DNA from: Solimonas sp. K1W22B-7 | Lineage (GTDB): Bacteria > Pseudomonadota > Gammaproteobacteria > Nevskiales > Nevskiaceae | NCBI RefSeq assembly: GCF_003428335.1 | Contig: NZ_CP031704.1 | Location: 992,001 to 1,056,000 of the forward strand | Length of the DNA stretch: 64,000 nt | Direction: 5' to 3' | Part shown: positions 28,870 to 63,972 of the stretch, piece by piece | How the letters are laid out: every line of letters starts with the position of its first letter | How positions within the stretch are numbered: position 1 is the first letter of the stretch | Notes under the pieces: model-generated | The model's database searches: none | What the model was told of the DNA's origin: nothing | The model's input: only the letters and a program-made list of their open reading frames with translations | Program-made: the position numbers and the translations under genes

Positions 28870-29013
28870 CGTTAAAACTAAAATTCTTTTGTTATCAAAA
28901 TCATAGTAAAAATATTCGATTTTCGACTAAACACTTTGCCGTTTTCTTCGGATCAGGTGGGGGAGCGGGCTGGATTCACGGCCCCCAGATCCACGCAGGT
29001 TCAAAGAAAACAC
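28870..29013 (+). promoter_or_regulatory. AT-rich leader of RHS gene 2
   Basis: Counterpart of 7446-7628. It contains the identical 37-nt block (28917-28953) and the same run-up to the ATG at 29014. An in-frame ATG at 28936 lies within this conserved leader and is unlikely to be the start. Confidence 0.4.
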
Positions 29014-48867: not shown

Positions 48868-49325
48868 GTGTGGAGCTTGCGAAAGGGGATGAAATAGCCA
48901 ATCTTCTGAGAGAGGTCTGTGCCTTAGACTGGATTAGGAACTCTTTCAGTGTGGCATCCTTCCGTACAAAGGAGGGTGAAACTATTGAGGATCGGTCTAC
49001 AGAGCCGCCCTATACAAGTTTTCGGCTTAGTGAAGAGAATGAGGCACAAATTAAAAAAATTGATGCTGCAATAAGTTCATATCGAGGAAGAGTTGAGTGG
49101 ACTTTGGTACGGCGGGATCGTTCTCCACACATTGGGATCAATTGGGTCATATGCCCTCAGCTAACGATTGACAAGGAAGCGGAGGCAAAAAAAAACGGAC
49201 TAACTGTGCAGCAGTACTTCAAGAAGTTTATGCCTGAGTTTGGTGTTCTCGCATATCAAGATATGGCTGATCTCGTGCTGGTGCTGAGCAACAGCTTGAA
49301 AGGAAAGAAAAAGGGGTCGGAGTAA
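48864..49325 (+). CDS. Candidate immunity protein for the RHS 2 tip
   Basis: 153 aa. The start ATG at 48864 overlaps the RHS 2 stop (ATGA), so translation is coupled. No signal peptide or membrane helix is seen and no family is recognised with confidence; features include an acidic N-terminal half and WTLVRRDRSPHIGINWVICPQ. The gene is AT-richer than its surroundings. Its last codons (KKKGSE) are encoded by the GGGGTC box, so the original 3' end may have been replaced by the repeat. Position directly behind a toxin tip supports an immunity role; this is inference. Confidence 0.65.
   Translation: MSVELAKGDEIANLLREVCALDWIRNSFSVASFRTKEGETIEDRSTEPPYTSFRLSEENEAQIKKIDAAISSYRGRVEWTLVRRDRSPHIGINWVICPQLTIDKEAEAKKNGLTVQQYFKKFMPEFGVLAYQDMADLVLVLSNSLKGKKKGSE
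49309..49323 (+). repeat. GGGGTC box, third copy
   Basis: aaaaggggtcggagt, identical to the core of the 18-bp repeats at 27930 and 28485. It forms the last codons of the candidate immunity gene and lies just before the trailing repeat block, as in locus 1. Confidence 0.8.
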
Positions 49326-50220: not shown

Positions 50221-50763
50221 ATGCAAAGCATTTTCGACGGTGAGGAGCTGTTGGTCCTCGCCCGCATGGATCTTGAGAAAGGCATCGTAGAGCAGGGCCT
50301 TTCCAAGCTGAAACAGGCGGCGGCGCTCGGGGATTGCCCTCCGGCGGCGCGGCTGGAACTGGCGCGTGTTTATGCGCAGCTGGGTCTGCGCCAGAAGGCG
50401 CGCTCGCAGTTCGAGGCTTACCTGCAGGCCCGGCCTGAGGACGTCGATGCCACCTTCCAGCTCGGCATGACGCGCTTCGAAGACGGCGAGACCGATGCGG
50501 CGCTGGCGCTGTGGGACCGCGTGCTGCAGCAGGCTTCGCAGTATCCGCCGGCGCTGTATTTCCGCGCCGTGGCAGCTGCCCGCCAGGGGCAGGGCAAGGA
50601 TGCCAGGGCCATGCTGCGGACAGCCCTGGATGTGATCCCGGCGGACAACCTTTACTTCACGCGCTCGCGAGATCTGCTGGCCTCGATGGACGCCGCCGAA
50701 AAGGCCGGAAAGGCCGAGCCGGTGGCGATCAACGCGGCGGACGCCTACCGCACCCAGCACTAG
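50221..50763 (+). CDS. TPR-repeat protein 1 at the head of the flagellar-type operon
   Basis: 180 aa, no signal peptide. About four tetratricopeptide-like helix pairs run from residue 10 to 150; segments such as RLELARVYAQLGLRQKARSQ and LALWDRVLQQASQYPPALYF have the usual small-residue pattern. The C-terminal 25 residues are alanine-rich and probably flexible. TPR proteins act as scaffolds or chaperones. Being the first gene of an operon for export-gate and rod proteins, it may handle exported subunits as class II chaperones do in type III systems. That role is inferred from position. Confidence 0.75.
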   Translation: MQSIFDGEELLVLARMDLEKGIVEQGLSKLKQAAALGDCPPAARLELARVYAQLGLRQKARSQFEAYLQARPEDVDATFQLGMTRFEDGETDAALALWDRVLQQASQYPPALYFRAVAAARQGQGKDARAMLRTALDVIPADNLYFTRSRDLLASMDAAEKAGKAEPVAINAADAYRTQH

Positions 50764-50784: not shown

Positions 50785-51972
50785 GTGTCCCAAACAGGGA
50801 AGGTAGATGCCACCGCTCGCCTCGAGCGACTGCGCGGCTTTTTGCGTGCCGATCCGGCCAACGTCAGTCTCGCGCTCGACGCGGCGGCCATGGCTCGTGA
50901 GACGGAAGACCTGAAGGCCGAAGGCGAGATCCTGGCGGCGATTGCTTCCCGGCATCCGGACAATGCGGAGATCGGGCACGCGCTCGGCATCAACGCGCTG
51001 CAGCAGCATGATTTCCGCCGAGCGGCGGTCTGCTTCGAGGGGCTGCTGGCTGCGGGGCATGATCACTCCGCCCTGCGCTACAACCTGGCTTTCGCGCAGT
51101 TCTACGCGCGCGCGCCGCAGGCGGCGGTCGACGCCCTCGCGGGCTTCACCGACGCCGACTGGGCGGAGCTGCCGCAGGCGCACAAGCTGTTCGCGCAGGC
51201 GGCGCATCACGTGGACGAGGACGGGCTGGAGCGCACCATCTCGCACCTGCAGAAGTATCTCGCGGTGAACGGCGAAGACGCCGAGGCCCATGGCCTGCTG
51301 GCGCTGGCCCTGTTCGACGACGACCTGATCGAGCAGGCCGAGCAGCGCATCCTGGCGACGCTGCAGCGCCAGCCCGACGAGCCCAATGCCCTGCTTGCGC
51401 AGGGCGGCCTGGCGCTGGAGCGGCAGGATTCGCGTCTCGCCTCGGAATCCTTCGAGGGCACCCTGAAGCGCCAGCCGGCCAATGGTCGTGCCTGGTCCGG
51501 CCGCGGCTATGCGTACCTGCTGGACTTCGACTTTCCCGCCTCGCGCACGGCTTTCGAAAAGGCCGTGGAGTTCATGCCCGACCACATCGGTACCTGGAAT
51601 GGCCTGGCCTGGGTGCAGATATTGCTGGGCGATCTTGCCGGGGCCCAGCAGAGCCTGGAAAAGGCGATGGCGCTGGACCGCAACTCCGCCGACGTCCACG
51701 GCAGCATGGCGGTGATCGCTGCCATGCAGGGCCGCAGCGACGAGGGGCGGCTGATGGCGCGCCGCGCACGTGGCCTCGACGCCAAGAGCTTCTCGGCGCG
51801 CTATGCCGAGAGCCTGCTGGCGGACCGCGCTGGCGAGGGCGACCGTGCGCAGCAGATATTCCAGGACATGCTGTCCGACAGCACGGTCGAGAACGGCGCC
51901 TCGGTGCGCGAACTGGCGGCGGCGCTGATGCAGCGCCAGCAGCGCGAGGCCGATGGCCGGAGCAAACGGTGA
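50785..51972 (+). CDS. TPR-repeat protein 2
   Basis: 395 aa from a GTG at 50785 with a good gtcgggag ribosome-binding site, 21 nt after the first TPR gene. It has no signal peptide. Repeated helix pairs cover most of the chain, with clear TPR units at ANGRAWSGRGYAYLLDFDFP, IGTWNGLAWVQILLGDLAGA and SADVHGSMAVIAAMQGRSDE. The tail is rich in glutamine and arginine. Its stop overlaps the fliQ start, so it is co-translated with the export gate. I know of no standard flagellar gene of this kind at this place. It may be a cytoplasmic assembly or chaperone factor. Confidence 0.75.
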   Translation: MSQTGKVDATARLERLRGFLRADPANVSLALDAAAMARETEDLKAEGEILAAIASRHPDNAEIGHALGINALQQHDFRRAAVCFEGLLAAGHDHSALRYNLAFAQFYARAPQAAVDALAGFTDADWAELPQAHKLFAQAAHHVDEDGLERTISHLQKYLAVNGEDAEAHGLLALALFDDDLIEQAEQRILATLQRQPDEPNALLAQGGLALERQDSRLASESFEGTLKRQPANGRAWSGRGYAYLLDFDFPASRTAFEKAVEFMPDHIGTWNGLAWVQILLGDLAGAQQSLEKAMALDRNSADVHGSMAVIAAMQGRSDEGRLMARRARGLDAKSFSARYAESLLADRAGEGDRAQQIFQDMLSDSTVENGASVRELAAALMQRQQREADGRSKR

Positions 51973-52238
51973 CCGCCGATCTCGCGCTCAAGCTGTCTCA
52001 GGAAATGCTGTGGACGGCGATGCTCGTCGCCGCCCCGGTGGTGGGCGTCAGCATGATCGTGGGCCTGATCGTCAGCATCTTCCAGGTGGTGACCCAGATC
52101 CAGGAAATGACGCTGACCTTCATTCCCAAGATGCTGGCCATCTTCTTCGTGCTGGTGGCGCTGGGCCCCTGGATGCTGGCCACGCTGGTGCAGTTCGGCA
52201 CCACGCTGTTCACCAACATCCCGATCTACGTCCGCTAA
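51969..52238 (+). CDS. fliQ: Flagellar/type III export gate protein FliQ
   Basis: 89 aa, GTG start overlapping the previous stop (GTGA). Two hydrophobic hairpin helices are separated by the conserved SIFQVVTQIQEMTLTFIPK segment, the hallmark of FliQ/SctS. It forms the inner-membrane export gate with FliP, FliR, FlhA and FlhB. fliP is not upstream here, so it must lie elsewhere. Confidence 0.95.
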   Translation: MTADLALKLSQEMLWTAMLVAAPVVGVSMIVGLIVSIFQVVTQIQEMTLTFIPKMLAIFFVLVALGPWMLATLVQFGTTLFTNIPIYVR

Positions 52239-52242
52239 GACC

Positions 52243-53016
52243 ATGCACCTGGTGCTCCATGCAGAGTGGCTCGTCATGCTCCTGATGGCGGCGGCGCGCG
52301 TGGCCGGGGCGCTGGCCTTTGCACCGGTGCTCGGGGTGGCGACGCTACCGGCGAACATCCGGCTGTTCTTCATCCTGGCCATGGCCCTGCTGACGGCGGG
52401 GCTGGCGGCGGGCACGGCGGTGCTTCCGCCCATGCCCCAGACGCTGCCGGGCCTGATCCTGGCGATGGGCCGTGAGTTGCTGCTGGGCGGCCTGCTGGGC
52501 TTCGGCATCCTTGCCGCCTTCGGCGCGCTGGCGGTGGGCGGGCGCCTGCTGGATTACCAGATGGGCTTCGGCATCGCCACGCTGTTCGACCCCGCCACGC
52601 GCGGTCATGGCTCGCTGATGGGCGCGCTGTTCACCATGCTGGGCGCGACCGTGTTCCTGGGACTGGACGCCCACCACACCTTGATCCGCGGTCTGGCCTT
52701 CGCCTTCCAGACGGTGCCGGTGGGGGCGCCGCTGTCGGTGCCGATCCACCTGGTGATGGGGCAGTTCGGGCTGATGTTCGTCTATGGCTTCATCCTGGTG
52801 GCGCCGGCGGTCTGCGCGCTGATGCTGATGGACCTGGTGATCGGCTTTGCCGCGCGCGTCATGCCGCAGGTCAATGCCTACTTCGTGGCGCTGCCGGCCA
52901 AGGCTTTCGTCGGCCTGCTGGTCACGGCAATTTCGCTGCGCTTCTCCGGCGGCATCGTGCAGAGCCTGTTCGAGAAGATTTTCACCTACTGGCAGCAGGT
53001 CCTGGTCGCGAGATAG
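52243..53016 (+). CDS. fliR: Flagellar export gate protein FliR
   Basis: 257 aa, starting 4 nt after fliQ. It is strongly hydrophobic throughout, with about six membrane or gate helices. Family features include RVAGALAFAPVLG near the start, GGRLLDYQMGFGIATLFDP in the middle and PQVNAYFVALPAK near the end. FliR closes the FliP/FliQ/FliR gate helix assembly. Length is normal for the family. The flagellar rather than injectisome assignment rests on the neighbours. Confidence 0.93.
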   Translation: MHLVLHAEWLVMLLMAAARVAGALAFAPVLGVATLPANIRLFFILAMALLTAGLAAGTAVLPPMPQTLPGLILAMGRELLLGGLLGFGILAAFGALAVGGRLLDYQMGFGIATLFDPATRGHGSLMGALFTMLGATVFLGLDAHHTLIRGLAFAFQTVPVGAPLSVPIHLVMGQFGLMFVYGFILVAPAVCALMLMDLVIGFAARVMPQVNAYFVALPAKAFVGLLVTAISLRFSGGIVQSLFEKIFTYWQQVLVAR

Positions 53017-53018
53017 CC

Positions 53019-54095
53019 ATGGCCGAGCAAGGCGCAGACCAGGACAAGTCCGAACCCGCAACCCCCTTCAAGCTGGAGGAGGCGCGCAAGCGCGGGCAGG
53101 TCTTCAAGAGCGTGGAGCTGAACTCGCTGGCGGTACTGTCGGTGGCGCTGACGGCCACGGTTGCGTTCTCGGAGTCGGCCATCCGCAAGACCTTTGCGAT
53201 GTCGCAGGGGCTGCTGCGCGAGGCCGGTCGCTCGGAACTGACCATCCCCTTCGTGGTGAACCTGATGGGCACGCTGTCGCGCCATGTCCTGTTCCTGCTG
53301 TTGCCGTTCCTGCTGCTGGTGATGGCGGCCGGCGTGCTGGCCAATTTCCTGCAGACCGGCCCGGTGTTCTCGTTCACGCCGCTGAAACCGGACTTCAGCC
53401 GCCTCAATCCGGCGACGGGCCTGAAGCGCCTGTTCTCCATGCGCTCGGTCTACGATGGGTTCAAGTCGATCCTGAAGCTGGCATTGCTGGGCGTGGTGCT
53501 GTTCTGGATGATCTGGTCGCTGCTGCCCGAACTGCTGATGCTGTCGCGCCAGCCGCTGGCGTCCTACCCCGACCTGTTCGTGAGCATGTCCAGCTTCGTG
53601 CTGTTCGTGCTGCTGCTGGGTCTGCTCGGCCTGGCGCTGCTGGACCTGGGCTACACGCGCTGGGAGTTCATGAAGAAGATGCGCATGAGCCGGCGCGAAC
53701 TCAAGGACGAGGTCAAGCGCCGCGAAGGCGACCCGCTGATCCGCTCCAAGCGCCGCGAGATCCAGCGTGCGATGCGCAAGAAGGCGGTGTCGGCCGGGCG
53801 CATCAAGGACGCCGACGTGCTCATCACCAACCCCACGCACATCGCCGTGGCCCTGCAGTACCGCCGCGATGACATGCCCGCGCCCAAGCTGATCAGCAAG
53901 GGCGCCGGCGATGCCGCACTGAAGCTGCGCCGCGCGGCGTTCCGCCATGGCGTGCCGGTGATCGAGAACCCGCCCCTGGCGCGCCTGCTGTACCGCAAGA
54001 CCGACCTGGACCAGTACGTGCCCGAGGAAACCTACCGGGAGGTTGCGCTGCTGCTGCGCAGCGTGCAGAAGCCATCGCCGGAGAAGCCGGCATGA
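53019..54095 (+). CDS. flhB: Flagellar export switch protein FlhB
   Basis: 358 aa. Seen: an N-terminal lysine-rich EEARKRGQVFKS region, four hydrophobic segments between about 33 and 215, and a cytoplasmic domain with the autocleavage site NPTH at residues 271-274 in ADVLITNPTHIAVALQY. FlhB self-cleaves between Asn and Pro and switches export from rod/hook to later substrates. An intact NPTH suggests a working switch. The stop overlaps flhA (ATGA). Confidence 0.95.
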   Translation: MAEQGADQDKSEPATPFKLEEARKRGQVFKSVELNSLAVLSVALTATVAFSESAIRKTFAMSQGLLREAGRSELTIPFVVNLMGTLSRHVLFLLLPFLLLVMAAGVLANFLQTGPVFSFTPLKPDFSRLNPATGLKRLFSMRSVYDGFKSILKLALLGVVLFWMIWSLLPELLMLSRQPLASYPDLFVSMSSFVLFVLLLGLLGLALLDLGYTRWEFMKKMRMSRRELKDEVKRREGDPLIRSKRREIQRAMRKKAVSAGRIKDADVLITNPTHIAVALQYRRDDMPAPKLISKGAGDAALKLRRAAFRHGVPVIENPPLARLLYRKTDLDQYVPEETYREVALLLRSVQKPSPEKPA

Positions 54096-56146
54096 GCGCC
54101 GCCAGCCTGTCCCGCCAGATGCTGGGCTCCCGGTCCGAGCTGTTCGTGATCGCCGGCGTGGTCGGCATCCTGGTGGTGCTGTTCTCGCCGATCCCGCCGG
54201 GCCTGCTCGACTTCCTGCTGATCACCAACTTCTGCCTGGCGGCGCTGATCCTGCTGCTGACGTTCTATACCGACAAGCCGCTGACCTTCTCCACCTTCCC
54301 GTCGATCCTGCTGATCGCCACGCTGCTGCGCCTGTCGCTCAACGTGGCGGCGACGCGCCTGATCCTGACCGACGCCTATGCGGGGCGCGTGATCGAGGCG
54401 ATCGGCTCGCATGTGGTGGCGGGCAACTACGTCATCGGCCTGGTGGTATTCCTGATCCTGATCGTGGTGCAGTTCGTGGTGGTCACCAACGGCGCCCAGC
54501 GCGTGGCCGAAGTAGCGGCCCGCTTCACCCTGGATGCGATGCCCGGCAAGCAGATGAGCATCGACGCCGACCTCAACATGGGCCTGATCACCGAGGTCGA
54601 GGCCCGCGAGCGCCGCAAGGAGATCGAGCGCGAGGCCAGCTTCTACGGCGCGATGGACGGCGCCAGCAAGTTCGTCAAGGGCGATGCTATCGCCGGCATC
54701 ATCATCATCCTGATCAACATCATCGGCGGCCTGGCCATCGGTCTGGTGCAGAAGGGCATGGGCTGGTCCGAGGCCCTGGCCACCTACACCCTGCTGACCG
54801 TGGGCGATGGCATCGTCACCCAGATTCCGGCGCTGGTGATTGCCACCGCCACCGGCATCCTGGTGACCCGTGCCGCCACCGACGCGGACCTGACGCGCGA
54901 GATGCTGTCGCAGGTGACGCGCTATCCCAAGTCACTGGTCATCCTGGGCGGCGCGCTGTTCGCCACCCTGTTCCTGCCCGGCATGCCGGCACTGCCGGTG
55001 CTGGCGATCCTGGTGCTGGTGGTGGCGGCAGCCGTCATGGCCCACCGCGCACGCGCGCGCGAAATGGCGGCGGAGCCCGTTGCGGAGGATGCCGGCGCTG
55101 GAGGCGAAGAGGCCGTGTCCTACGCGTCGCTGGCGGTGGAGCCGCTGGAACTGGAAATGGGTGCGGCACTGCGCCCGCTGATCGGCCAGGACGATGGCCT
55201 GTTCATGAAGCGCATCAAGGCTTTCCGTCGCCAGCATGCGACCGACATCGGCCTGATCATTCCCAGTCTGCGCCTGCGAGAGGACGCGCGCCGCGCTCCA
55301 GAAACCTATGCCATCCGTTTCTTCGGTGCCACGGTGGCCGAGGGCGAGATGCGTCAGCACGCGGTGTTGGCAATCAATCCCGGAAATGCCGGAAGCGCCA
55401 TCCAGGGCGAAAAGACACGCGATCCCACTTTCGGCTTGCCGGCGCTGTGGATCCAGCCGGGCGACGTCACCGCGGCGCGCGCTGCCGGCTACACGGTGGT
55501 GGAGCCGCTGACGGTGCTGGTCACGCACTTCTCCGAGGTGATCCGCAACCAGGGCCATCACCTGGTGACACGCCAGGAGACCGAGCGCCTGGTCGGCACC
55601 GTGCGCGAAGCGCAGCCCAGCCTGGTGGAGGAGTTGATCCCGGGCGTGCTGTCCCTGAGCGACGTGCAGAAGGTGCTCAAGGCGCTGCTCAAGGAGCGCG
55701 TGCCGATCCGCAACATGGACTTCGTGCTGGAGGCCCTGCTCGAGGCCGGCCGCCAGACCAAGGACCACGAGGTGCTGACCGAGCGTGTGCGCGAGAAGCT
55801 GGGCCTGGCCATCACGCAGCGTTTTGCCAGCAAGGACGGCGCCCTGCACGTGCTGACGCTGGAGCCGGCCTCCGACAAGGTGCTGCGCGATGCCATCCGG
55901 CAGAGCGAGGGCGGTACCACGTCCCTGGACCCGGGCTGGATGGACCGCCTGGTGCGCGCGCTGTCGCGCCACGTCGAGGACATGCTGGGCCAGAACATCG
56001 TGCCGGTGCTGATCTGCGCGCCGTCGGTGCGCCGCTTCCTGCGCCGTGCCACCGAGGCCTCGCTGCCGCATCTCAACGTCATTTCCACCTCCGAGCTGAA
56101 CAGCACGCTGTCGGTGCGCGTCCATGCCACGGCGGGCGTCACCTGA
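54092..56146 (+). CDS. flhA: Flagellar export protein FlhA
   Basis: 684 aa. The N-terminal half is a membrane domain with about eight helices to about residue 325, containing the FHIPEP-family signature LRLSLNVAATRLIL and the cytoplasmic loop DLNMGLITEVEARERRKEIE. The C-terminal half is the soluble platform that docks chaperone-substrate complexes, with conserved stretches LTHFSEVIRNQGHHL, VTRQETERL and SLVEELIPGVLSLSDVQKVL. It has family length. It overlaps flhB by 4 nt and is followed 15 nt later by flgF. It forms the nonameric ring of the export gate. Confidence 0.95.
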   Translation: MSAASLSRQMLGSRSELFVIAGVVGILVVLFSPIPPGLLDFLLITNFCLAALILLLTFYTDKPLTFSTFPSILLIATLLRLSLNVAATRLILTDAYAGRVIEAIGSHVVAGNYVIGLVVFLILIVVQFVVVTNGAQRVAEVAARFTLDAMPGKQMSIDADLNMGLITEVEARERRKEIEREASFYGAMDGASKFVKGDAIAGIIIILINIIGGLAIGLVQKGMGWSEALATYTLLTVGDGIVTQIPALVIATATGILVTRAATDADLTREMLSQVTRYPKSLVILGGALFATLFLPGMPALPVLAILVLVVAAAVMAHRARAREMAAEPVAEDAGAGGEEAVSYASLAVEPLELEMGAALRPLIGQDDGLFMKRIKAFRRQHATDIGLIIPSLRLREDARRAPETYAIRFFGATVAEGEMRQHAVLAINPGNAGSAIQGEKTRDPTFGLPALWIQPGDVTAARAAGYTVVEPLTVLVTHFSEVIRNQGHHLVTRQETERLVGTVREAQPSLVEELIPGVLSLSDVQKVLKALLKERVPIRNMDFVLEALLEAGRQTKDHEVLTERVREKLGLAITQRFASKDGALHVLTLEPASDKVLRDAIRQSEGGTTSLDPGWMDRLVRALSRHVEDMLGQNIVPVLICAPSVRRFLRRATEASLPHLNVISTSELNSTLSVRVHATAGVT

Positions 56147-56161
56147 AGGGCATAGCAACTC

Positions 56162-56881
56162 ATGACCGACATCGCCGCACTTGCCACCGCCACCCTGTCC
56201 AACGACATGGAGCGCCTGCGCATCATCGCGCAGAACCTGGCCAACGCTTCCACTCCGGCCTATCGCGCAGAGGTGCCCCTGGGCGGAGGCCCTGGCTCGT
56301 TCTCCGCTTTGATCGACGGTACGCAGGCGGGTTCGCCCGTGGAGGCTTACCGCTCCGAACGCCAGGGGCCGATCCAGCAGACCGGCCGCAAGCTGGATCT
56401 GGCGATCGAAGGCGAGGGTTGGTTCCGTTTGCAGACGCCCGACGGCGTGCGCTACACGCGCCGCGGGGATTTCACCATGGATGCCAGCGGTCGCGTGATC
56501 AATCCGCAGGGCTTCCAGCTGCTGGCCGGTGGCGCGCCGCTGAGCCTGCCGAACATGGATTTCGACATCGACTCGCAGGGCGCCGTCAAGGTCGGCACTG
56601 GCGTGCTCGACCGTATCCTGCTCGGCCAGGCCGAGGAGGGCGAGCCGCTGGAGTACGTCGGCGACAGCCTCTACGCAGCGGCGCAGGAACTGCCGATGGT
56701 GGCGCCGGAAGCCGGCACCGCGGCGATCCGCCAGGGCGCGATCGAGCGCGGCAACGTCGATCCGCTGCAGGAAATGGTGGCGATGATGCAGACCGTGCGC
56801 CACTTCGGCAGCAGCGCCGAAGCGCTGCGTGCCTACGACCAGATGCTGGATGCGGCGATCAACAAGATCGGCGATTTCTGA
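56162..56881 (+). CDS. flgF: Flagellar proximal rod protein FlgF
   Basis: 239 aa. The N-terminal rod motif is a variant (MERLRIIAQNLANASTPAYR). The middle has LDLAIEGEGWFRLQTPDG..YTRRGDFTMD, the flagellar basal-body rod/hook core. The C-terminal helix is GNVDPLQEMVAMMQTVRHF...YDQM. Length and order before flgG make FlgF the best name. It would be exported without a signal peptide through the FlhA/FlhB gate. Confidence 0.88.
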   Translation: MTDIAALATATLSNDMERLRIIAQNLANASTPAYRAEVPLGGGPGSFSALIDGTQAGSPVEAYRSERQGPIQQTGRKLDLAIEGEGWFRLQTPDGVRYTRRGDFTMDASGRVINPQGFQLLAGGAPLSLPNMDFDIDSQGAVKVGTGVLDRILLGQAEEGEPLEYVGDSLYAAAQELPMVAPEAGTAAIRQGAIERGNVDPLQEMVAMMQTVRHFGSSAEALRAYDQMLDAAINKIGDF

Positions 56882-56918
56882 GCGCAACCACCCACGCGAC
56901 AGGCTTACAGGAACAACC

Positions 56919-57698
56919 ATGATCGACGCGATCTACGCCAGTATCTCCGGTTTGCAGGCGCATCAGCTGCGGCTCGATGCCCTGTCCAACAACCTCGCCA
57001 ACGTCAGCACCCCGGGCTTCAAGAAGACACGCGTGAACTTCGCCGACCTGATGTATCGCCCGGTCACGGGTGGAGTCACCGACGCCGGTGTGCAGGAGAA
57101 ACTGCCGCAGCTGGGTCTGGGCACGGCCGTGGCCAGCACGGAAGCGATCTTCAGCCAGGGCGACATGCGCCAGACCCAGCGTCCGCTGGACATGGCGATC
57201 CTCGGCCAGGGTTTCCTGGAAGTGCAGCTCGCCGACGGCAGCTTCGCCTACACGCGGCTGGGTTCGCTGCGCCTGAACGAGACCGGCGAGCTGGTGACCC
57301 AGGATGGCCTGCGCATCTCGGGCGACATCCGCGTGCCGGCCGAGGCCACCAAGCTGGTCATCGGGCAGGACGGCAAGATCATGGCGACCATGCCAGGCGA
57401 GGACGATCCCGAGGAGATCGGGCAGCTGGAGCTGACGGGCTTCGTCAACGCCGCGGGGCTCAAGTTGCTGGGCGGTGGCCTGTACGGTGCCACCGAGGAA
57501 TCCGGCGAAGCCTTTTATGGCACGCCTGGAGAGGTAGGTCTGGGCAAGCTGCGCCAGGGCTTCCTGGAAATGTCCAACGTCGATTTCGTGGAAGAGCTTG
57601 CCGAGCTGGTGGTGGCGCAGCGCGCCTACCAGCTCAATGCGCGGGCGCTGCAGGCGGCGGACGAAGTGCTCGCCGAGATCAACGGCCTGCGTCGCTGA
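56919..57698 (+). CDS. flgG: Flagellar distal rod protein FlgG
   Basis: 259 aa from ATG 56919 with a cagga ribosome-binding site; a longer upstream frame is not supported. Seen: ISGLQAHQLRLDALSNNLAN followed by VSTPGFKKTRVNFADLMY, the classic rod/hook N-terminus; LDMAILGQGFLEVQLADGS in the core; and the C-terminal heptad SNVDFVEELAELVVAQRAYQ. Family length is normal (about 260). It builds the distal rod that passes through the P and L rings encoded just downstream. Confidence 0.95.
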   Translation: MIDAIYASISGLQAHQLRLDALSNNLANVSTPGFKKTRVNFADLMYRPVTGGVTDAGVQEKLPQLGLGTAVASTEAIFSQGDMRQTQRPLDMAILGQGFLEVQLADGSFAYTRLGSLRLNETGELVTQDGLRISGDIRVPAEATKLVIGQDGKIMATMPGEDDPEEIGQLELTGFVNAAGLKLLGGGLYGATEESGEAFYGTPGEVGLGKLRQGFLEMSNVDFVEELAELVVAQRAYQLNARALQAADEVLAEINGLRR

Positions 57699-57706
57699 AG
57701 GTCGCC

Positions 57707-58432
57707 ATGCCGCTGAGCCGCACCCTGCTGACGATTGCCGTGCTGGCCCTTGTGGGCCTGCAGCCGGCCGCGTCCAGTGCTGCTCCCGGGATGGATGCTT
57801 TCGCCAGTTGCCCGGAAGAGTCCGGACAGATGCGCCATGTCACCGCGCAGGTGCGCGAAATGTTCAGCGAAGCGAGCCGCATCTGTGCGCTCAACGCCAT
57901 TCCGGCCGACGCATGCGACGGTGCGGTGGCGGCGATCGACGTGCAACCGCTGGGAGCGGTGGCCCAAGGCCGCCTGGCGGTGGCCGCCGGCCTGCGCTGC
58001 GATGATGGCAGTCAGCGGCGCCTGCCGCTGTGGTTCCGGGTGGAAGCGCCGCAGCGCACGGCAGTGGCCCTGCATGCCTTGCGCAGCGGCGCGCTGGTGG
58101 TGCCTGAAGACTTCGAATGGACCGAACGCATGGCGCCGGTGTCGGGCGCGGCGCTGAGCCCGGACGGCTGGAACGCGGGCAGCCGGCGCCTGGCCCGTCC
58201 GCTGCGTGCCGGCGACGTGCTATTGGCCGCCGACCTGCGTGCGGTGTCGGCGGTGGAATCCGGCACGACAGTGCAGGCCGCCCTGGCCCAGGGAGGGGTG
58301 CGCATGAGGTTTGACGCTGTCGCCATGGGCGATGGCGCATCGGGCGATCGCATCCGTGTGAAGAGCCGACGTGGCGGCAGGTCGCTGCCGGCCCGTGTGA
58401 CGGGGAACAATACCGTGGAGCTGTTGCCGTGA
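57707..58432 (+). CDS. flgA: Flagellar P-ring assembly chaperone FlgA
   Basis: 241 aa with a clear Sec signal peptide (MPLSRTLLTIAVLALVGLQP then ...AASSA). The C-terminal half has the SAF-type domain: ALRSGALVVPEDFEWTERMA, then RRLARPLRAGDVLLAADLRAV, and the closing RVKSRRGGRSLPARVTGNN. FlgA works in the periplasm to polymerise FlgI into the P ring. It sits with flgH and flgI, as expected. Confidence 0.92.
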   Translation: MPLSRTLLTIAVLALVGLQPAASSAAPGMDAFASCPEESGQMRHVTAQVREMFSEASRICALNAIPADACDGAVAAIDVQPLGAVAQGRLAVAAGLRCDDGSQRRLPLWFRVEAPQRTAVALHALRSGALVVPEDFEWTERMAPVSGAALSPDGWNAGSRRLARPLRAGDVLLAADLRAVSAVESGTTVQAALAQGGVRMRFDAVAMGDGASGDRIRVKSRRGGRSLPARVTGNNTVELLP

Positions 58433-59016
58433 AACCGAACCGATCGATGCAGTGCCTGCTGCCCAGCCTGGTCCTGATGCTGGCCCATGCACCGGTCCTG
58501 CACGCCGACAACCTCTATGACGAGAAGAACTTCCGGGCACTGGCTGCCGATGTGCGCGCGAGGGATGTGGGCGATCCCGTGACAGTGCTGATCGTCGAGA
58601 ATTCCTCGGCCGAGAGCCGGGCCAACTCTTCGGAGGACGCGAGCTTCTCGCTCAATGCCGGCATCAAGGATGCGACCGGGCCGGCATCCGCGGGGCTGGA
58701 CATTGAATCCAACAGCGACGGCGCCGCTCACACTGCGCGCGGTGGCAACCTGCGCGCACAGGTCTCGGCGCGGGTGGAAAAGAAGCTGGACAACGGCAAT
58801 CTGTTCATCCGCGGCCGGCAGCGGATTCGCGTCAACGGCGAGGAGCAGGAAATCAAGCTTGAGGGCGTGGTGCGGCCCGTGGATATCGCCGGTGCCAACG
58901 TCGTGCTGTCCACCCGCATCATGGACGCCAAGATCGAATACAGCGGGCAGGGCTGGGTGTCGCGCACCCAGAATCCCGGGATCTTCCTGCGCTTCCTGCA
59001 GTTCCTGGGCCTGTGA
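58429..59016 (+). CDS. flgH: Flagellar L-ring protein FlgH, lacking a lipobox
   Basis: 195 aa, GTG start overlapping flgA (GTGA). The core matches FlgH: LYDEKNFRALAADVRARDVG, then VTVLIVENSSAESRA, RVEKKLDNGNLFIRGRQRI, EEIKLEGVVRP-type strands and DAKIEYSGQGWVSRTQNPG. FlgH normally forms the outer-membrane L ring as a lipoprotein. Here the signal peptide ends in APVLHA and the only nearby Cys (residue 9) lies before the hydrophobic core, so no lipobox is present. The protein is also shorter than the usual 220-235 aa. Confidence 0.9.
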   Translation: MKPNRSMQCLLPSLVLMLAHAPVLHADNLYDEKNFRALAADVRARDVGDPVTVLIVENSSAESRANSSEDASFSLNAGIKDATGPASAGLDIESNSDGAAHTARGGNLRAQVSARVEKKLDNGNLFIRGRQRIRVNGEEQEIKLEGVVRPVDIAGANVVLSTRIMDAKIEYSGQGWVSRTQNPGIFLRFLQFLGL

Positions 59017-60164
59017 CCATGCATATCAAGTTTCTCGTGTTCGCCCTGTCGGGATGCCTCGCGCTGGTGGCGCAGGGTGCTGCCGCCGTCGATACGGCGG
59101 TGCCGATCCGCCTGAAGGACCTGGTTCGCGTGGACAACGCGCGGCCCAACCCGCTGGTGGGCTACGGCCTGGTGATGGGCCTTGCAGGTACCGGCGACAC
59201 CAGCCGCAGCCGTGCGACTGCGCAATCGATCGCCAACACCCTCAATCGTCTCGGGGTGAACGTGGATCCGTCGTTGCTGAACAGCCGCAATACCGCGGCG
59301 GTGCTGGTGACCGCCTCGCTGCCACCGTTCGCCAACATCGGCGATCCGCTCGACATCAGCGTGTCCTCGCTCGGTGACGCCCGCAGCCTGGCCGGCGGTA
59401 CCCTGCTGATGACGCCGCTGCAGGGGCCCAACGACGTGGTGTATGCACTGGCCCAGGGGCCGGTCACCGTCGGTGGATTCCGCTACGACGCTTTCGGCAA
59501 CCTCGTGCAGAAGAACCACCCCACCGTCGGCATGATCAGTGCCGGCGCCACGGTGGAGAAGCGGATGATGACCGCGATCCTTACCGAGGAAGGGGCCTTG
59601 CATCTCATCCTGAAGGAGCCCGACTTCACCACCGCCGACCGTATCGTCGATGCCCTGCTCGACGAGTTCGGCAGCAACCGGCAGGGGACGGAAATCCTCG
59701 CCGCCGGACCGGACCGGATCGTTTTCCGCCTGACGCGCGGCGAGCAGCTGCAACTGGTCGACGTCCTGCGGCGGATCGAAGGGCTTACCGTGGTGCCCGA
59801 CCTGATCGCCCGGGTCGTGGTCAACGAGCGTACGGGCACCATCGTCAGCGGCGGCGACGTGCGCCTTGCGACCGCCTCGATCACCCACGGTGACCTGCGC
59901 GTCAATATCGAGACCGACTACCTGGTGTCGCAGCCAGGCTTTGTCTCGCGCACCGGCGGCGGCGTGCGCACCGCGATCGTGCCGGATACGACGATCACCG
60001 CGGCGGAATCGGCCTCCCAGACCGTCAGCGTGACTGCCGGCGCGACCGTCGCCGACCTGGCGTTGGCCTTGAGCCGCATCTCGGCGACGCCGCGCGATGT
60101 CATCACCATTTTCCAGGCTCTGCATCGCGCCGGTGCGCTGCATGCCGAGCTGATCATCCAGTAG
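59013..60164 (+). CDS. flgI: Flagellar P-ring protein FlgI
   Basis: 383 aa if started at GTG 59013, which overlaps flgH; ATG 59019, two codons later, is an equally good start. A signal peptide ends near GAAAVDT. Conserved parts: VRIDNARPNPLVGYG-like VRVDNARPNPLVGYGLVMGL, GTGDTSRSRATAQSIANTL, and NTAAVLVTASLPPFANIGDP, with the C-terminal block on ADLALALSRI...DVITIFQALHRAGAL. FlgI forms the peptidoglycan-associated ring around the distal rod. Its presence with FlgH implies a full trans-envelope structure. Confidence 0.95.
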   Translation: MTMHIKFLVFALSGCLALVAQGAAAVDTAVPIRLKDLVRVDNARPNPLVGYGLVMGLAGTGDTSRSRATAQSIANTLNRLGVNVDPSLLNSRNTAAVLVTASLPPFANIGDPLDISVSSLGDARSLAGGTLLMTPLQGPNDVVYALAQGPVTVGGFRYDAFGNLVQKNHPTVGMISAGATVEKRMMTAILTEEGALHLILKEPDFTTADRIVDALLDEFGSNRQGTEILAAGPDRIVFRLTRGEQLQLVDVLRRIEGLTVVPDLIARVVVNERTGTIVSGGDVRLATASITHGDLRVNIETDYLVSQPGFVSRTGGGVRTAIVPDTTITAAESASQTVSVTAGATVADLALALSRISATPRDVITIFQALHRAGALHAELIIQ

Positions 60165-60184
60165 TGTCCCCGAGCATAGAGCCC

Positions 60185-60562
60185 ATGAGCGACCCTCTCA
60201 GCAGTGTGACCTTCGACCTGGCGCTGGCTTCGCTGGATCTCAGCATGGCGCGCCATCGCCTGATCGCGGCCAACATCGCCAATCACGCTACCGCCGGCTA
60301 CGAGCCGCAGCGCCTGGATTTCGAGAGTCACCTGGCCGCGATCAACGCCTCGGCCCAGGCAGGCGCCCCTCAGGCCGATGTGCGCGAGCAGCTGCGTGCC
60401 CTGGTCGAGGGCCTGCCGGTGGAGGCGCAGGGCGGCCAGACCGTGCAGCTCGACGACGAGATCAACCAGTTGCTGACCAACACGCTGCACTACAACGCCG
60501 TGCTCACGGGCTTGGGCAAGCTCGGCGCCCTCAACAAGATCGCGATCGACGGAGCGCCCTGA
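60185..60562 (+). CDS. flgB: Flagellar proximal rod protein FlgB
   Basis: I choose ATG 60185, giving 125 aa; a GTG at 60164 overlapping the flgI stop would add seven residues. The sequence LSMARHRLIAANIANHATAGYEPQRLDFES is the FlgB version of the rod N-terminus. The C-terminal QLDDEINQLLTNTLHYNAV has the amphipathic helix of the family. FlgB starts the rod on the MS ring together with FliE. Its TGA overlaps the flgC ATG. Confidence 0.9.
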   Translation: MSDPLSSVTFDLALASLDLSMARHRLIAANIANHATAGYEPQRLDFESHLAAINASAQAGAPQADVREQLRALVEGLPVEAQGGQTVQLDDEINQLLTNTLHYNAVLTGLGKLGALNKIAIDGAP

Positions 60563-61005
60563 TGAGCGACTATCTCGGAATTTTCGACATCAGCGCCGCC
60601 GGCATGCGCACGGAGCGCCTGCGCCTGGAGGTCTCGGCGCTGAACCTGGCCAATGCCTACTCGGTCAAGGCGCCGGACGGCAGTCTCTACCGCCCGCAGC
60701 GTGTCGTCACCACCGCTGCCGGCGGTGGCGTACGGACCGATTTCGCCGTTCACATGGCCGAAGGGGACCTGGCTGCCGGCATGCCCTCGGCCGAAGTGAT
60801 CGACGCCGACGTGGCCCCGCGCCGCATGCAGCAGCCCGACCATCCCTATGCCGACAAGGACGGATTCATCGAGATGCCGACGATCGATCCGGCGATCGAG
60901 ATGAGCGAGATCATGACCGCCGTGCGAGCCTACGAGGCCAACGTCAAGGTCGTCAGCGCTGCCAAGGCGATGATGACCCGCGCACTCGAGATCGGAGAGC
61001 GCTGA
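60562..61005 (+). CDS. flgC: Flagellar proximal rod protein FlgC
   Basis: 147 aa. Motifs: FDISAAGMRTERLRLEVSALNLANAYS at the N-terminus (NLANA instead of the usual N(I/L)AN(A/V)-x-T, lacking the T-P/G end); PDHPYADKDGFIEMPTIDP; and the closing helix EMSEIMTAVRAYEANVKVVSAAK, which is very typical of FlgC. It overlaps flgB and fliE by one base each (TGATG). It is a rod subunit exported without a signal peptide. Confidence 0.93.
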   Translation: MSDYLGIFDISAAGMRTERLRLEVSALNLANAYSVKAPDGSLYRPQRVVTTAAGGGVRTDFAVHMAEGDLAAGMPSAEVIDADVAPRRMQQPDHPYADKDGFIEMPTIDPAIEMSEIMTAVRAYEANVKVVSAAKAMMTRALEIGER

Positions 61006-61316
61006 TGGCCATCGAATCGATCGCCGCCGTCGGCGCGGCAAGTGCTGCTGCCAGTTCCGCGCTGCCGGCCGCGGCCATCTCGCCGCTGCGCGAGCCCTCG
61101 ACGCTGTTCTCCGCGATCAGCGACCAGATTGCCATCACGGACCAGCGCATCCAGTCGGCCGACCAGTCGGTGAGGTCGCTGGCGGCTGGCGAGATCGAGG
61201 ATCTGCATGGCGTGATGCTGGACCTGGAGAAGGCGAAGCTGTCGCTGAGCCTGGTCGTTCAAGTCCGCAATCGCCTCCTGGAGTCGTACCAGGAAGTCAT
61301 GCGGATGCAGCTGTAA
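61005..61316 (+). CDS. fliE: Flagellar hook-basal body adapter FliE
   Basis: 103 aa. The N-terminal part is alanine-rich and low complexity; the C-terminal part has EIEDLHGVMLDLEKAKLSLSLVVQVRNRLLESYQEVMRMQL-type helices that define FliE, of which GEIEDLHGVMLDLEKAKLSL is the clearest. FliE links the MS ring (FliF) to the rod and is an early export substrate. It is followed three bases later by fliF. Length is normal. Confidence 0.93.
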   Translation: MAIESIAAVGAASAAASSALPAAAISPLREPSTLFSAISDQIAITDQRIQSADQSVRSLAAGEIEDLHGVMLDLEKAKLSLSLVVQVRNRLLESYQEVMRMQL

Positions 61317-61319
61317 TAC

Positions 61320-62744
61320 ATGAGCAAGGGTTCGACGAACATGTCGTTTGCAAAGTGGTGGGCCGCCCGGCCCGGACGCGACCAGCTGGTGATCGGCGGC
61401 GCAGTGTTCCTGATCCTCGCGGTCTTCGTAGCCGCCGTGGTCTGGTCGCTGGCGCCCCGGTACCGGGTGCTGCTGTCCAACCTCAGCGCGGTGGACGCCG
61501 CCAACATCGCCAATCAGCTGGCCCTGGAGCGGATTCGCTACAAGCTCGACGAGAAGCATGGTCGCCTGGAGGTGGCCGAGGACGATCTCGATGTGGCGCG
61601 GATGTACGTGATGGAGCGCGGCCTGCCGCAGAGCCGGCCGGTAGGCTTCGAACTGTTCGACGAGTCGGACTTCGGCATGACCGACTTCAACCAGCGGATC
61701 AACTACCAGCGCGCACTGGAAGGGGAGTTGACGCGCACGATCATGGCCCTGGACGAGGTCGATCACGCACGGCTGCATCTCGTGATTCCGGAGGTCAGCC
61801 TGTTCAAGCGCCAGGACGAAGTACCCAAGGCGTCCCTCACCCTGTCGCTGAAGCCCGGTGCGGCACTCAGCGCACGCAGCGTACAGGGCATCCAGAACCT
61901 GATCGCGTCCGCCGTTCCGGGCCTGGCGCCGGAGCGCGTGGCGATCCACGACCACCTCGGCGGTCCGCTGTCGACCGATGCCGCCGATCCCCTGTCCGGC
62001 GGGATCGTCGCCGCCCGTCTCGAGGCCAAGCGGAGCTACGAAGCCTATCTCTCGCGCAAGGCTCAGGAGGTGCTGGATCGCCGGTTCGGCGCCGGTTCGG
62101 CGGCTGTGATGGTCGACGTGGAGGTTGACCATGACCGCAAGCAGCTGACGCGCTCGGAGGTGATCCCGGTGCGTGAAGGGGTGACCGGTGCGGTTACCGG
62201 CCTGCGTTCGCTGCGCGGCGCAGCTTCGTCTTCGGAATTGATCGACGAGGACGAGGAGCAGCCGCGCCTGGCACCACCCAATGCCACCACCGAGGTGAAG
62301 TACGAGGTTGGCAGGCAGGAGGAGCGCATCGACGTCACCGCCGGGGCCATCCGGCGCATGACGGTCGGCGTGCTGGTGCCGGTGGGCACTGCGGCGGAGG
62401 AACGCCAGCGGATCGCGGATACGATCGCCAACGCCATCGGTCTGGATGCGGCCCGTCGCGGCGATTCGATCACCGTGCAGGAACTCGGAAGCGCGGCGGT
62501 CTCCCTGAGGATGGCCAACAGCCTCGCACCGGAGCAGGTATCGGCGCGCAGTGTCATCGACTGGCGGAATACAGCGCTGCTGGTGGCGGTCATCCTGGCT
62601 GCGCTGGCGTTGGTGCTGGCTCTCCATTCCTGGTACCGCAGCGGCGGCGGGCAGCTGTCCCAAGCCGAGCGCGAGCGATTGCTGGGCGATGTACGCAGCC
62701 TGCTCGAGCGGACGGATGCCCCTCCGGGGAGGCCCTTGCCGTGA
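61320..62744 (+). CDS. fliF: MS-ring protein FliF with short cytoplasmic tail
   Basis: 474 aa against roughly 550-590 in rotary flagella. Two membrane helices, near residues 22-45 and 418-440, enclose the periplasmic ring-building domains. Typical segments are VLLSNLSAVDAANIANQL, MYVMERGLPQSRPVGFELFD, QRINYQRALEGELTRTI and VIPEVSLFKRQDEVPKASLTL, with a collar region to about 410. After the second helix only about 35 residues remain, and I see no match to the FliG-binding end of FliF. The next gene is not a normal fliG. This points to a basal body with an altered or missing rotor connection. An alternative start is the Met at residue 8. Confidence 0.9.
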   Translation: MSKGSTNMSFAKWWAARPGRDQLVIGGAVFLILAVFVAAVVWSLAPRYRVLLSNLSAVDAANIANQLALERIRYKLDEKHGRLEVAEDDLDVARMYVMERGLPQSRPVGFELFDESDFGMTDFNQRINYQRALEGELTRTIMALDEVDHARLHLVIPEVSLFKRQDEVPKASLTLSLKPGAALSARSVQGIQNLIASAVPGLAPERVAIHDHLGGPLSTDAADPLSGGIVAARLEAKRSYEAYLSRKAQEVLDRRFGAGSAAVMVDVEVDHDRKQLTRSEVIPVREGVTGAVTGLRSLRGAASSSELIDEDEEQPRLAPPNATTEVKYEVGRQEERIDVTAGAIRRMTVGVLVPVGTAAEERQRIADTIANAIGLDAARRGDSITVQELGSAAVSLRMANSLAPEQVSARSVIDWRNTALLVAVILAALALVLALHSWYRSGGGQLSQAERERLLGDVRSLLERTDAPPGRPLP

Positions 62745-63232
62745 GTTCCGTCCGCTCGATCGCCCTGCTGCTATCGATGTTGCCCGCCGGTGACCGGCGC
62801 TGGCTGCTCGGGCAACTGGAGCCGGCGCAGCAGCTGCGTATCGAGCCCGAACTCAGGGCGGTGCTGCAGCTGCCGCCGGCCACGCGCCGGCGCGAGGCCG
62901 CCCGCGTTTCGCAAGGGCCCGTTCTGCAGGACCACCGGACCGCCGCGGATCCCCGCGAGCCCGATGAGTTGCAGCCGCTGATCGCGCGCCTGGATCAGGT
63001 GGAAGAATCGCGCATGACAGCCCTGTGGCGTGGCAGCCCGGACTGGCTGCTGCAGGCCTTCCTCTCGATTCATTCCTGGCGCTGCCGGACCGCGCTGCAG
63101 TCGCTGCTGCCGTCTTCGCGCGGTCAGCCGGTGGTGGCCCCGGCGCAGTCCGGGATGCTGCGGCGCAAGCTGCTCGAAGCGGTGCTCGCAGCGCTTGAGC
63201 GCAGCGGGCCGGTCGTGGGAGATCTGTCGTGA
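62741..63232 (+). CDS. Small unknown protein in the fliG/sctK position
   Basis: 163 aa, GTG start overlapping fliF (GTGA). It lies between fliF and fliH, where flagellar operons carry fliG (about 330 aa) and injectisome operons carry sctK between sctJ and sctL. The start RSIALLLSMLPAGDRRWLLG and following LEP..QLRIEPEL recall the FliG N-terminal helices, and SPDWLLQAFLSIHSWRCRTALQSLL recalls a FliG middle-domain helix pair. However, it is half length and has neither an EHPQ motif nor the charged C-terminal torque helix. It could be a reduced FliG or an SctK-like sorting-platform protein. I cannot name it safely. Confidence 0.7.
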   Translation: MSSVRSIALLLSMLPAGDRRWLLGQLEPAQQLRIEPELRAVLQLPPATRRREAARVSQGPVLQDHRTAADPREPDELQPLIARLDQVEESRMTALWRGSPDWLLQAFLSIHSWRCRTALQSLLPSSRGQPVVAPAQSGMLRRKLLEAVLAALERSGPVVGDLS

Positions 63233-63972
63233 CGTCCGTCATCAAGACCGCACGCATCTCGGAGACGCCCCTTTCCCTGGAGCGTTCGACACGGCAGGGC
63301 CAGGAGCGTCGCCCGCCGCAGCGTGAGCAGCCGATGGCTGTGCCCGCGCCGCGCGTTGAAGCGCGCGTCGCCGCCGAGGCGTTGGCCCCGGCCGTCCAGC
63401 TTTCCGCACCGCTGGCAGCAATGCCGGACTCGGCCGCGCTTGAAGCGGAGCGCCTGGAGCTGACGAGGCGCCGGGAGAAGGCCGAACGCGAAGGCTATGA
63501 GCATGGCTTGCGCAAGGCGGCGGTCGAGACTGAGCGCATCCGCAAGGAAGAGCTGCAGCGCCTGCGCGCGCTGGTCGAGGCGCTGGACGCCGAGCGCAAT
63601 CGCTTCGGCGGCAAGCTCGAGGATGCTGCGGTGGAGATCGTGTTCGAGTCGCTGGTGCGCCTGCTCGGGCGTGCGTTTGCCAGTTCCATGGGCGTTGCGT
63701 CCGCGGTGCGCGAGGTGATCGACCAGCACAGCGCCGGGCAGAAGACCCTGGCGGTGCGCATGGCGCCCTCGGACCTGGAACTGCTGGGGGAGACAGGCCT
63801 GGCTACCATCCGCAGCGGCCTGCGCGCCGAACTGCAGTTCGAGGCAGACGAAAGAATCCAGCCGGGCGGCTGCCTGATCGACATGGCATCCGGCAGTCTC
63901 GATGCGCGCCTGGACCTGCAACTGGAACGTCTGAAACAGGCCCTGCTGGACGCGCGGCGGTCGGGCGAGTAG
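63229..63972 (+). CDS. fliH: Export-ATPase regulator FliH (FliH/SctL family)
   Basis: 247 aa, GTG start overlapping the previous stop. The N-terminal 70 residues are proline- and alanine-rich and disordered-looking. A charged helix follows (about 73-130), with repeated EREGYEHGLRKAAVETERI-type heptads. The C-terminal globular part has VIDQHSAGQKTLAVRMAPSD, then ERIQPGGCLIDMASGSLDAR and LDLQLERLKQALLDA, the FliH/SctL stator fold. It holds the FliI ATPase at the export gate. The following start codon probably begins fliI. Confidence 0.88.
   Translation: MTSVIKTARISETPLSLERSTRQGQERRPPQREQPMAVPAPRVEARVAAEALAPAVQLSAPLAAMPDSAALEAERLELTRRREKAEREGYEHGLRKAAVETERIRKEELQRLRALVEALDAERNRFGGKLEDAAVEIVFESLVRLLGRAFASSMGVASAVREVIDQHSAGQKTLAVRMAPSDLELLGETGLATIRSGLRAELQFEADERIQPGGCLIDMASGSLDARLDLQLERLKQALLDARRSGE

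What the first reader, a model, noticed from the sequence alone, without database searches (positions are those of the whole stretch)
61320..63232. FliF without a FliG-binding tail, next to a 163-aa protein instead of FliG
FliF has only ~35 residues after its second membrane helix, and the gene at the fliG position is half-size with no EHPQ motif or charged torque helix. The order fliF-x-fliH mirrors sctJ-sctK-sctL of injectisomes. The basal body encoded here may not rotate and may serve as a secretion device, or it may use a reduced rotor interface.
Basis: partly seen in the sequence, partly recalled or inferred. Interest (0 to 1): 0.75.

Follow-up and report, generated by a model that had tools for sequence, protein, structure and literature searches.

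The report
Torque-less flagellum beside giant toxin-like proteins
A bacterium of the Solimonas kind carries, beside a normal flagellar motor set, a second flagellum-like gene set that keeps the rings, rod, hook and export gate but has lost the parts that turn, steer and swim, and such sets keep company with genes for giant toxin-like proteins, which suggests a secretion machine rather than a motor.

Summary
The short FliF and its 163-aa neighbour are real. The neighbour is a reduced FliG: a 43-member family profile matches FliG among solved structures (12 of 13 hits, best E 2.3e-6) and models as FliG N plus middle domains, without the torque-bearing C domain. The cluster's 248-aa 'FliM' is a FliM middle plus SpoA domain without the CheY-binding end; FliN stays. 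Export gate, ATPase, rod, P/L rings, FlgD and hook remain; FliG, MotA/B, FliC, FliD and FlgL queries found nothing in 46 such loci. The window's genome has a separate conventional motor set. The type occurs across Beta- and Gammaproteobacteria and on plasmids. Twelve of 43 genomes with it hold no FliG C-domain, flagellin or MotA_N match, so no conventional motor can turn it there. Genomes with it share giant proteins (YD/RHS type where examined) with a common leader: 34 of 43 versus 1 of 35 controls, and that one control also has the cluster. Best reading: a non-rotary hook-basal-body secretion machine, plausibly exporting these giants. A FliG-less flagellar exporter is reported in Lysobacter; I found no description of the mini-FliG class or its giant partner.

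The parts
61320..62744 (+). fliF, short type (474 aa; about 38 residues after TM2)
62741..63232 (+). mini-FliG (163 aa): FliG N + middle domains, no C-terminal torque domain, no EHPQ
63229..63972 (+). fliH
51969..52238 (+). fliQ (export gate)
   Evidence: name from order and sequence
52243..53016 (+). fliR
   Evidence: name from order and sequence
53019..54095 (+). flhB, NPTH self-cleavage site kept
54092..56146 (+). flhA
56162..56881 (+). flgF (rod)
56829..57698 (+). flgG (rod; start probably 56913)
57707..58432 (+). flgA (P-ring chaperone)
58429..59016 (+). flgH (L ring)
59013..60164 (+). flgI (P ring)
60164..60562 (+). flgB (rod)
60562..61005 (+). flgC (rod)
61005..61316 (+). fliE
50221..50763 (+). 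TPR protein 1 (candidate chaperone; inference)
50785..51972 (+). TPR protein 2 (candidate chaperone; inference)
   Evidence: matches in 15 of 46 loci
28936..48867 (+). giant YD/RHS protein 2 (leader Met at residue 27 of the ORF; RHS repeats, PA14, LysM, own C-terminal tip): candidate substrate
7629..27416 (+). giant YD protein 1 (6595 aa), 69% identical to giant 2 up to its C-terminal tip: candidate substrate
48795..49325 (+). 176-aa protein overlapping the end of giant 2, candidate immunity protein (position only)

Best explanation
The cluster builds a non-rotary flagellar basal body with hook, used as a type III secretion machine. SHOWN by sequence: the export gate (FlhA, FlhB, FliPQR), FliH and FliI, MS ring, rod, P and L rings, hook cap and hook are kept; the C-ring survives as a mini-FliG (N+M), a FliM without its CheY-binding end, and FliN; the torque domain of FliG, stators, FlgL, filament and cap were not found in the clusters, and in 12 of 43 genomes FliG_C, flagellin and MotA_N are missing genome-wide. 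INFERRED mechanism: the stripped C-ring serves only as docking scaffold for the ATPase complex under the gate; substrates pass FlhA/FlhB, FlhB still switches export class (NPTH kept), and with no flagellin or FlgK/L the late substrates are other proteins. The best candidates are giant proteins (frames of about 3,200-12,900 aa where not cut by contig ends; YD/RHS type where examined) that share an N-terminal leader without visible signal peptide (roughly MVAIVSGNGLGLFNxSL...VNAATGNLVLQ), co-occur with the cluster and in part lie beside it; flanking TPR proteins would be their chaperones, and the differing C-terminal tips of the window's two copies suggest polymorphic toxins.
Confidence: 0.72

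Rival explanations
1. The basal body rotates after all: in genomes with a second, conventional set, its FliG, FliM and MotAB are incorporated in trans, and the short parts are accessory.
For: The window's genome and 31 of 43 others hold a FliG C domain and flagellin elsewhere.
Against: Twelve of 43 genomes with the cluster lack FliG_C, flagellin and MotA_N matches altogether; the FliG and FliM slots are already filled by reduced forms; no filament genes found in the loci.
Confidence: 0.06
2. A decaying remnant flagellum without function.
For: Motor and filament genes are missing; on the Undibacterium YM2 plasmid flgI is annotated in two pieces and fliH lies displaced on the other strand.
Against: In the loci read gene by gene the set is otherwise intact and in the same order, the same genes are absent in 46 loci, and cluster FlhAs form one clade over many genera.
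Confidence: 0.05
3. A sister of, or intermediate toward, the non-flagellar injectisomes (mini-FliG = ancestral SctK, reduced FliM+FliN = SctQ).
For: Same gene order as sctJ-K-L; in L102 and L209 the FliM-like frame is 362-363 aa, long enough for two SpoA domains as in SctQ (fusion inferred from length). The unrooted FlhA tree, with three separate groups, does not exclude it; I raised this from 0.12 on re-checking, because my first wording read more into the midpoint root than it bears.
Against: Window FlhA scores 415-523 bits to 7 flagellar rows and 332-414 to 7 SctV rows and passes the FlhA but not the SctV cut-off; rod, P/L rings and hook are kept. No SctK model is in the family lists shown, which is weak evidence; no secretin search was run.
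Confidence: 0.18
4. The machine is a non-rotary secretion device, but the giants are not its substrates: they share islands or hosts only, and the cargo is unknown (or the hook itself is the product).
For: Nine of 43 cluster genomes lack the leader; many giants lie on other contigs; from general knowledge YD proteins can leave by other routes.
Against: Leader-specific co-occurrence over many genera, the positive control that turned out to carry the cluster, direct adjacency on plasmids and in the window; leaders begin at or near Met1.
Confidence: 0.25

Closest known systems
Flagellar type III apparatus of non-flagellated Lysobacter enzymogenes OH11 (PMC7277350, abstract, passages and section 3.1; PMC9927559, abstract and passages)
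   Same: Non-flagellated; fliG, fliM, motA/B, fliC, fliD, flgK, flgL reported lost in Lysobacter; export functional (heterologous flagellin secreted, flhB and fliI dependent) without a FliG homologue.
   Different: There the genes were found by BLAST with Xanthomonas queries and said not to form an operon, with flgB and fliE also scored lost; no mini-FliG/FliM or giant partner in the passages seen. Whether it is the same class was not tested here.
Bacterial flagellum (hook-basal body)
   Same: Gate, FliH/FliI, MS ring, rod, P/L rings, FlgD, hook, FliN.
   Different: No torque domain, stator, CheY-binding end of FliM, FlgL, filament or cap found.
Non-flagellar T3SS / injectisome (PMC3459982, abstract and passages)
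   Same: Non-motile derivative of flagellar export machinery; reduced C-ring.
   Different: Keeps FlgB/C/F/G, FliE, FlgD/E and FlgH/I; per that paper Myxococcus-type systems lack FlgBCDEK, FliEG, FlgH and MotAB.
FliG (PF14842, PF14841, PF01706)
   Same: N and middle domain sequence and fold.
   Different: C-terminal domain and EHPQ lost.
RHS/YD polymorphic toxins
   Same: RHS repeats, PA14, LysM; two copies with like bodies and unlike tips in the window.
   Different: Shared short leader and tie to a flagellar-type exporter.

Membership tests
Motile bacterial flagellum | FliG C-terminal torque domain | tested here: not met
   FliG query 0 of 46 loci; own genome's only FliG_C is in the other set
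Motile bacterial flagellum | Stator MotA/MotB | tested here: not met
   0 of 46 loci; no MotA_N match genome-wide in the 12 FliG_C-less genomes
Motile bacterial flagellum | Filament (FliC), cap, junction | tested here: not met
   FliC, FliD, FlgL 0 of 46; all 49 FlgK-query hits are rod/hook frames
Motile bacterial flagellum | Rod, P/L rings, hook, export gate | tested here: met
Injectisome (NF-T3SS) | Lacks rod proteins FliE, FlgB, FlgC (rule in PMC3459982) | tested here: not met
   all three in 46 of 46 loci
Injectisome (NF-T3SS) | FlhA homologue inside the SctV clade | tested here: not met
   7 SctV rows form their own group, 100/99, apart from 28 cluster rows; a sister position is not excluded
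Injectisome (NF-T3SS) | Secretin | not tested
   no secretin query was run
FliG family | N and middle domains | tested here: met
FliG family | C-terminal domain | tested here: not met
   model and frame end after the M domain
SctK family | Sequence or fold match to SctK | tested here: inconclusive
   no SctK model in the lists shown (25 of 30 families) nor in the fold rows
FliM family | CheC-like middle domain and SpoA domain | tested here: met
   (the middle domain by fold only; Pfam sees only SpoA)
FliM family | N-terminal CheY-binding motif (recalled) | tested here: not met
   0 of 38
Lysobacter FT3SS | Same gene cluster type | not tested

The most novel reading that the evidence does not exclude
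A distinct, widespread and partly plasmid-borne branch of type III machines: a non-rotary hook-basal body with a stripped C-ring, dedicated to exporting giant (about 0.35-1.4 MDa) YD-type polymorphic toxins through a flagellar hook by a shared N-terminal leader.
Probability: 0.5. Interest if true: 0.93.

Novelty: new variant of a known kind. Interest (0 to 1): 0.82.

Why it matters
[quoted passage not shown] Here is one coherent class with a consistent gene content: keep what is needed to export through a hook, discard what is needed to turn and steer. It would show that a flagellum can become a secretion machine without the injectisome plan, separate the export role of the C-ring from its torque role by natural experiment, and name a candidate cargo. 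Such clusters would count as flagella under the rule in PMC3459982 (no secretin, at least ten flagellar genes), so they may sit unnoticed in genome surveys.

Tried and rejected
Rejected: (1) 'Small protein unrelated to FliG': single-sequence Pfam, NCBIfam, PHROGs and PDB scans gave nothing useful; the family profile did. (2) My early reading that the 248-aa protein is SctQ-like with no FliM middle domain (Pfam sees only FliMN_C): the model shows a FliM-middle fold. (3) 'FliF lost its FliG-binding helix': most of the family keep the terminal motif, though a tail profile did not find the long FliFs at a significant score. My first motif count used the last 45 residues, which can include the end of TM2; I use the 30-residue count. 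(4) EHPQ kept as E-x-P: my strict pattern fits only 9 of 42. (5) FlgK presence: all 49 hits were rod/hook frames. (6) A FliG_C-like hit beside MotA in two genomes: in the one read (G115) it lies on another contig. (7) FliJ, FliO and FliK-like: my queries find 2, 4 and 2 of 46, so their presence elsewhere is not claimed. (8) 'FlhA groups with flagella': the tree has three groups and no root, so it cannot say so; withdrawn. Literature: ten searches; one search returned 'flight' papers through word-start matching and nothing. No title or abstract start in the lists shown described a mini-FliG class or a tie to YD giants; lists were capped, the library lacks most subscription papers, and the second Lysobacter paper was not held. 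Rows dropped before counts: L131 (no FliF frame), L134 (not held); L089, L098 and L105 (no FliM-like row found), L090 and L113 and three plasmid loci left out of A4.

Full report
Setting. The window is C1:992001-1056000 of a one-contig 5.37 Mb genome. The finding sits in one run of same-strand genes from 50221 in the window to about 7 kb beyond its end: TPR, TPR, fliQ, fliR, flhB, flhA, flgF, flgG, flgA, flgH, flgI, flgB, flgC, fliE, fliF, x, fliH, then fliI, fliJ and a fliK-like gene (both named by position), flgD, flgE, a FliM-like gene, fliN, fliO, fliP and a FliA/WhiG-like sigma factor (below its family cut-off), and on the other strand a 123-aa protein and a third TPR protein, then mraZ.

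The observation. FliF is 474 aa with 38 residues after the TM2 window. Of 79 loci with a FliF frame (L131 had none), 43 have a short FliF and 36 a long one. All 36 long ones are followed by a 331-338-aa FliG. Of the short ones 42 are followed by a small protein of 129-236 aa, 41 at E below 1e-18 against a profile seeded from 34 of them and L113 at 0.0017; L098 ends about 50 bases after fliF. Tails after TM2 have medians 37.5 and 90. The terminal phi-x-x-W-phi motif of ordinary FliF is in the last 30 residues of 39 of 44 short FliFs; the window, L076, L077, L107 and L108 lack it.

What is kept and lost. In 46 loci (43 plus three plasmids): flgF, flgG, flgI, flgB, flgC, fliE, fliF and flgE 46 of 46; flgH and fliI 45; fliH and flgD 44; FliM-like 43; fliN 42; flhA, flhB and flgA 41; fliP 40; fliR 36; sigma 31; fliQ 30. 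Rod and hook proteins, and FliM-like and FliN, are homologous, so their counts can borrow from each other; gate genes lie near the ends of the stretches and many misses are probably cut off (not checked one by one). FliG, MotA, MotB, FliC, FliD and FlgL queries from the same genome: 0 of 46 by single-sequence search; FliM 2 weak hits; FlgK hits are all rod or hook frames. FlhB keeps NPTH in 35 of 41 and NPVH in 4. FliF and FlhA pass the flagellar and fail the SctJ and SctV cut-offs.

Does a motor exist elsewhere? In the window's genome yes: FliG 1251170, FliM 1213317, FliN 1214290, MotA 1226529, long FliF 1248849, FlhA 1218346, flagellin 3941016; I did not check that set gene by gene. Over 43 genomes with the cluster, FliG_C is found in 31, flagellin N in 31, MotA_N in 30. 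The same 12 genomes lack all three; MotA_N is also missed in G126. Three of the 12 are isolates (Ramlibacter paludis, Ramlibacter monticola, Legionella maceachernii), nine are metagenome-assembled; completeness was not shown. So the apparatus persists where no conventional motor was found to turn it.

History. FlhA of 28 clusters forms one side of a branch (100/100), apart from 7 flagellar (85/75) and 7 SctV (100/99) rows. With three groups and no outgroup the tree does not say to which the clade is nearer; by score window FlhA is nearer to flagellar (415-523 bits) than to SctV rows (332-414). Long branches were flagged. Three plasmids carry the cluster: B. ubonensis pMSMB2035 (typed conjugative), Variovorax PDNC026 and Undibacterium YM2; on YM2 flgI is annotated in two pieces. 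Hosts are mostly Beta- and Gammaproteobacteria by record title.

The giant neighbours. Upstream lie two tandem giants, 7629-27416 (6595 aa) and 28936-48867 (6643 aa), 69% identical over about 6,200 residues, then different tips; the second holds RHS repeats, PA14 and LysM. Their N-terminus is a leader that in 41 of 49 examined stretches (some fetched twice) has Met within four residues of [VI]V[STG]G, with no signal peptide by eye. Searching the leader (E<=1e-5): 34 of 43 cluster genomes against 1 of 35 genomes reached through FliG-type FliF loci, p 1.5e-12 before any correction for descent; 30 of the 35 are Burkholderiaceae. I then looked at the one positive control, Paraburkholderia metrosideri: beside its giant lie flhB, flhA, a short FliF, a gene of at most 200 aa (x profile only at 1.6e-5 in a small max-sensitivity test), fliH, fliI, flgE and fliP, so it belongs with the cluster genomes: 35 of 44 against 0 of 34. 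That correction is one-sided, as the 34 negatives were not inspected. In the window's family: 3 of 6 with the cluster, 1 of 52 without; the one same-genus genome without the cluster (G048) lacks the leader. The exception G055 has a 560-aa leader frame and no flagellar gene in 40 kb. Of 72,556 plasmids, 6 carry the leader and at least 3 of these carry this FliF type (30 of 96 FliF records were listed). Same-contig linkage, judged by equal contig length or by lying inside the locus, holds in 8 of 21 genomes compared (one leader hit each; 13 further positive genomes were not compared), about 10-37 kb from fliF, besides the window and G139. On pMSMB2035 the giant follows the cluster's TPR genes directly; on YM2 a 12,948-aa protein annotated 'tandem-95 repeat', with the leader, ends about 3 kb before fliQ, which suggests that the leader is shared by different giant bodies.

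Reading. I take the machine to be non-rotary (high confidence) and secretory (good confidence: gate, ATPase, rod, rings and hook have no other obvious use, and export without a FliG homologue is reported in Lysobacter, PMC7277350 and PMC9927559). That the giants are its cargo is likely but inferred. TPR proteins at both ends match T3 chaperone models only weakly among many TPR families.

Novelty. A FliG-less functional flagellar exporter is in print for Lysobacter (passages; section). Myxococcus-type systems lack FlgBCDEK, FliEG, FlgH and MotAB (PMC3459982, passages), unlike this class. I saw no description of the mini-FliG/reduced-FliM class or of the giant partner in ten searches, whose lists were capped and whose library is incomplete. 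I file it as a new variant of flagellum-derived type III secretion, not as an injectisome and not as a flagellum in the motile sense.

Noticed in passing
L156:6617-9459 (G115:C55, genome of Trinickia diaoshuihuensis L107); parallel hits G116:C17:43101-43653: A 426-aa protein with an N-terminal cyclic-nucleotide-binding-like part (by eye) and a FliG_C-like end, directly followed by MotA- and MotB-like genes: a stator pair with its own fused rotor-like domain, in G115 on a contig other than the mini-FliG cluster.
   Followed up: partly
window 7629-27416 and 28936-48867: Two tandem giants of about 6,600 aa, 69% identical but with unlike C-terminal tips; tip 1 has a HAE...CxxC pattern resembling deaminases (by eye).
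   Followed up: partly
L039:37-11525 (G050 contig, Solimonas sp. SE-A11): Giant YD frame of at least 3677 aa followed by a 152-aa SMI1/KNR4-like protein (by eye) upstream of the same cluster.
   Followed up: no
   Followed up: no
L102:16633-17718 and L209:26535-27623: FliM-like frame of 362-363 aa, apparently FliM-like and FliN joined into one SctQ-like protein.
   Followed up: no
L003:11188-11559 (minus): 123-aa protein between the sigma factor and the third TPR gene, no family match; found in 12 of 46 loci. Candidate anti-sigma factor or chaperone.
   Followed up: no
G055:C67:25752-26021: Leader on a 560-aa frame in a genome without a short FliF: an orphan or a remnant of a giant.
   Followed up: partly
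L224:17555-18687 (Undibacterium YM2 plasmid): flgI annotated as two adjacent genes and fliH displaced to the other strand: this copy of the cluster may be damaged or mis-assembled.
   Followed up: no
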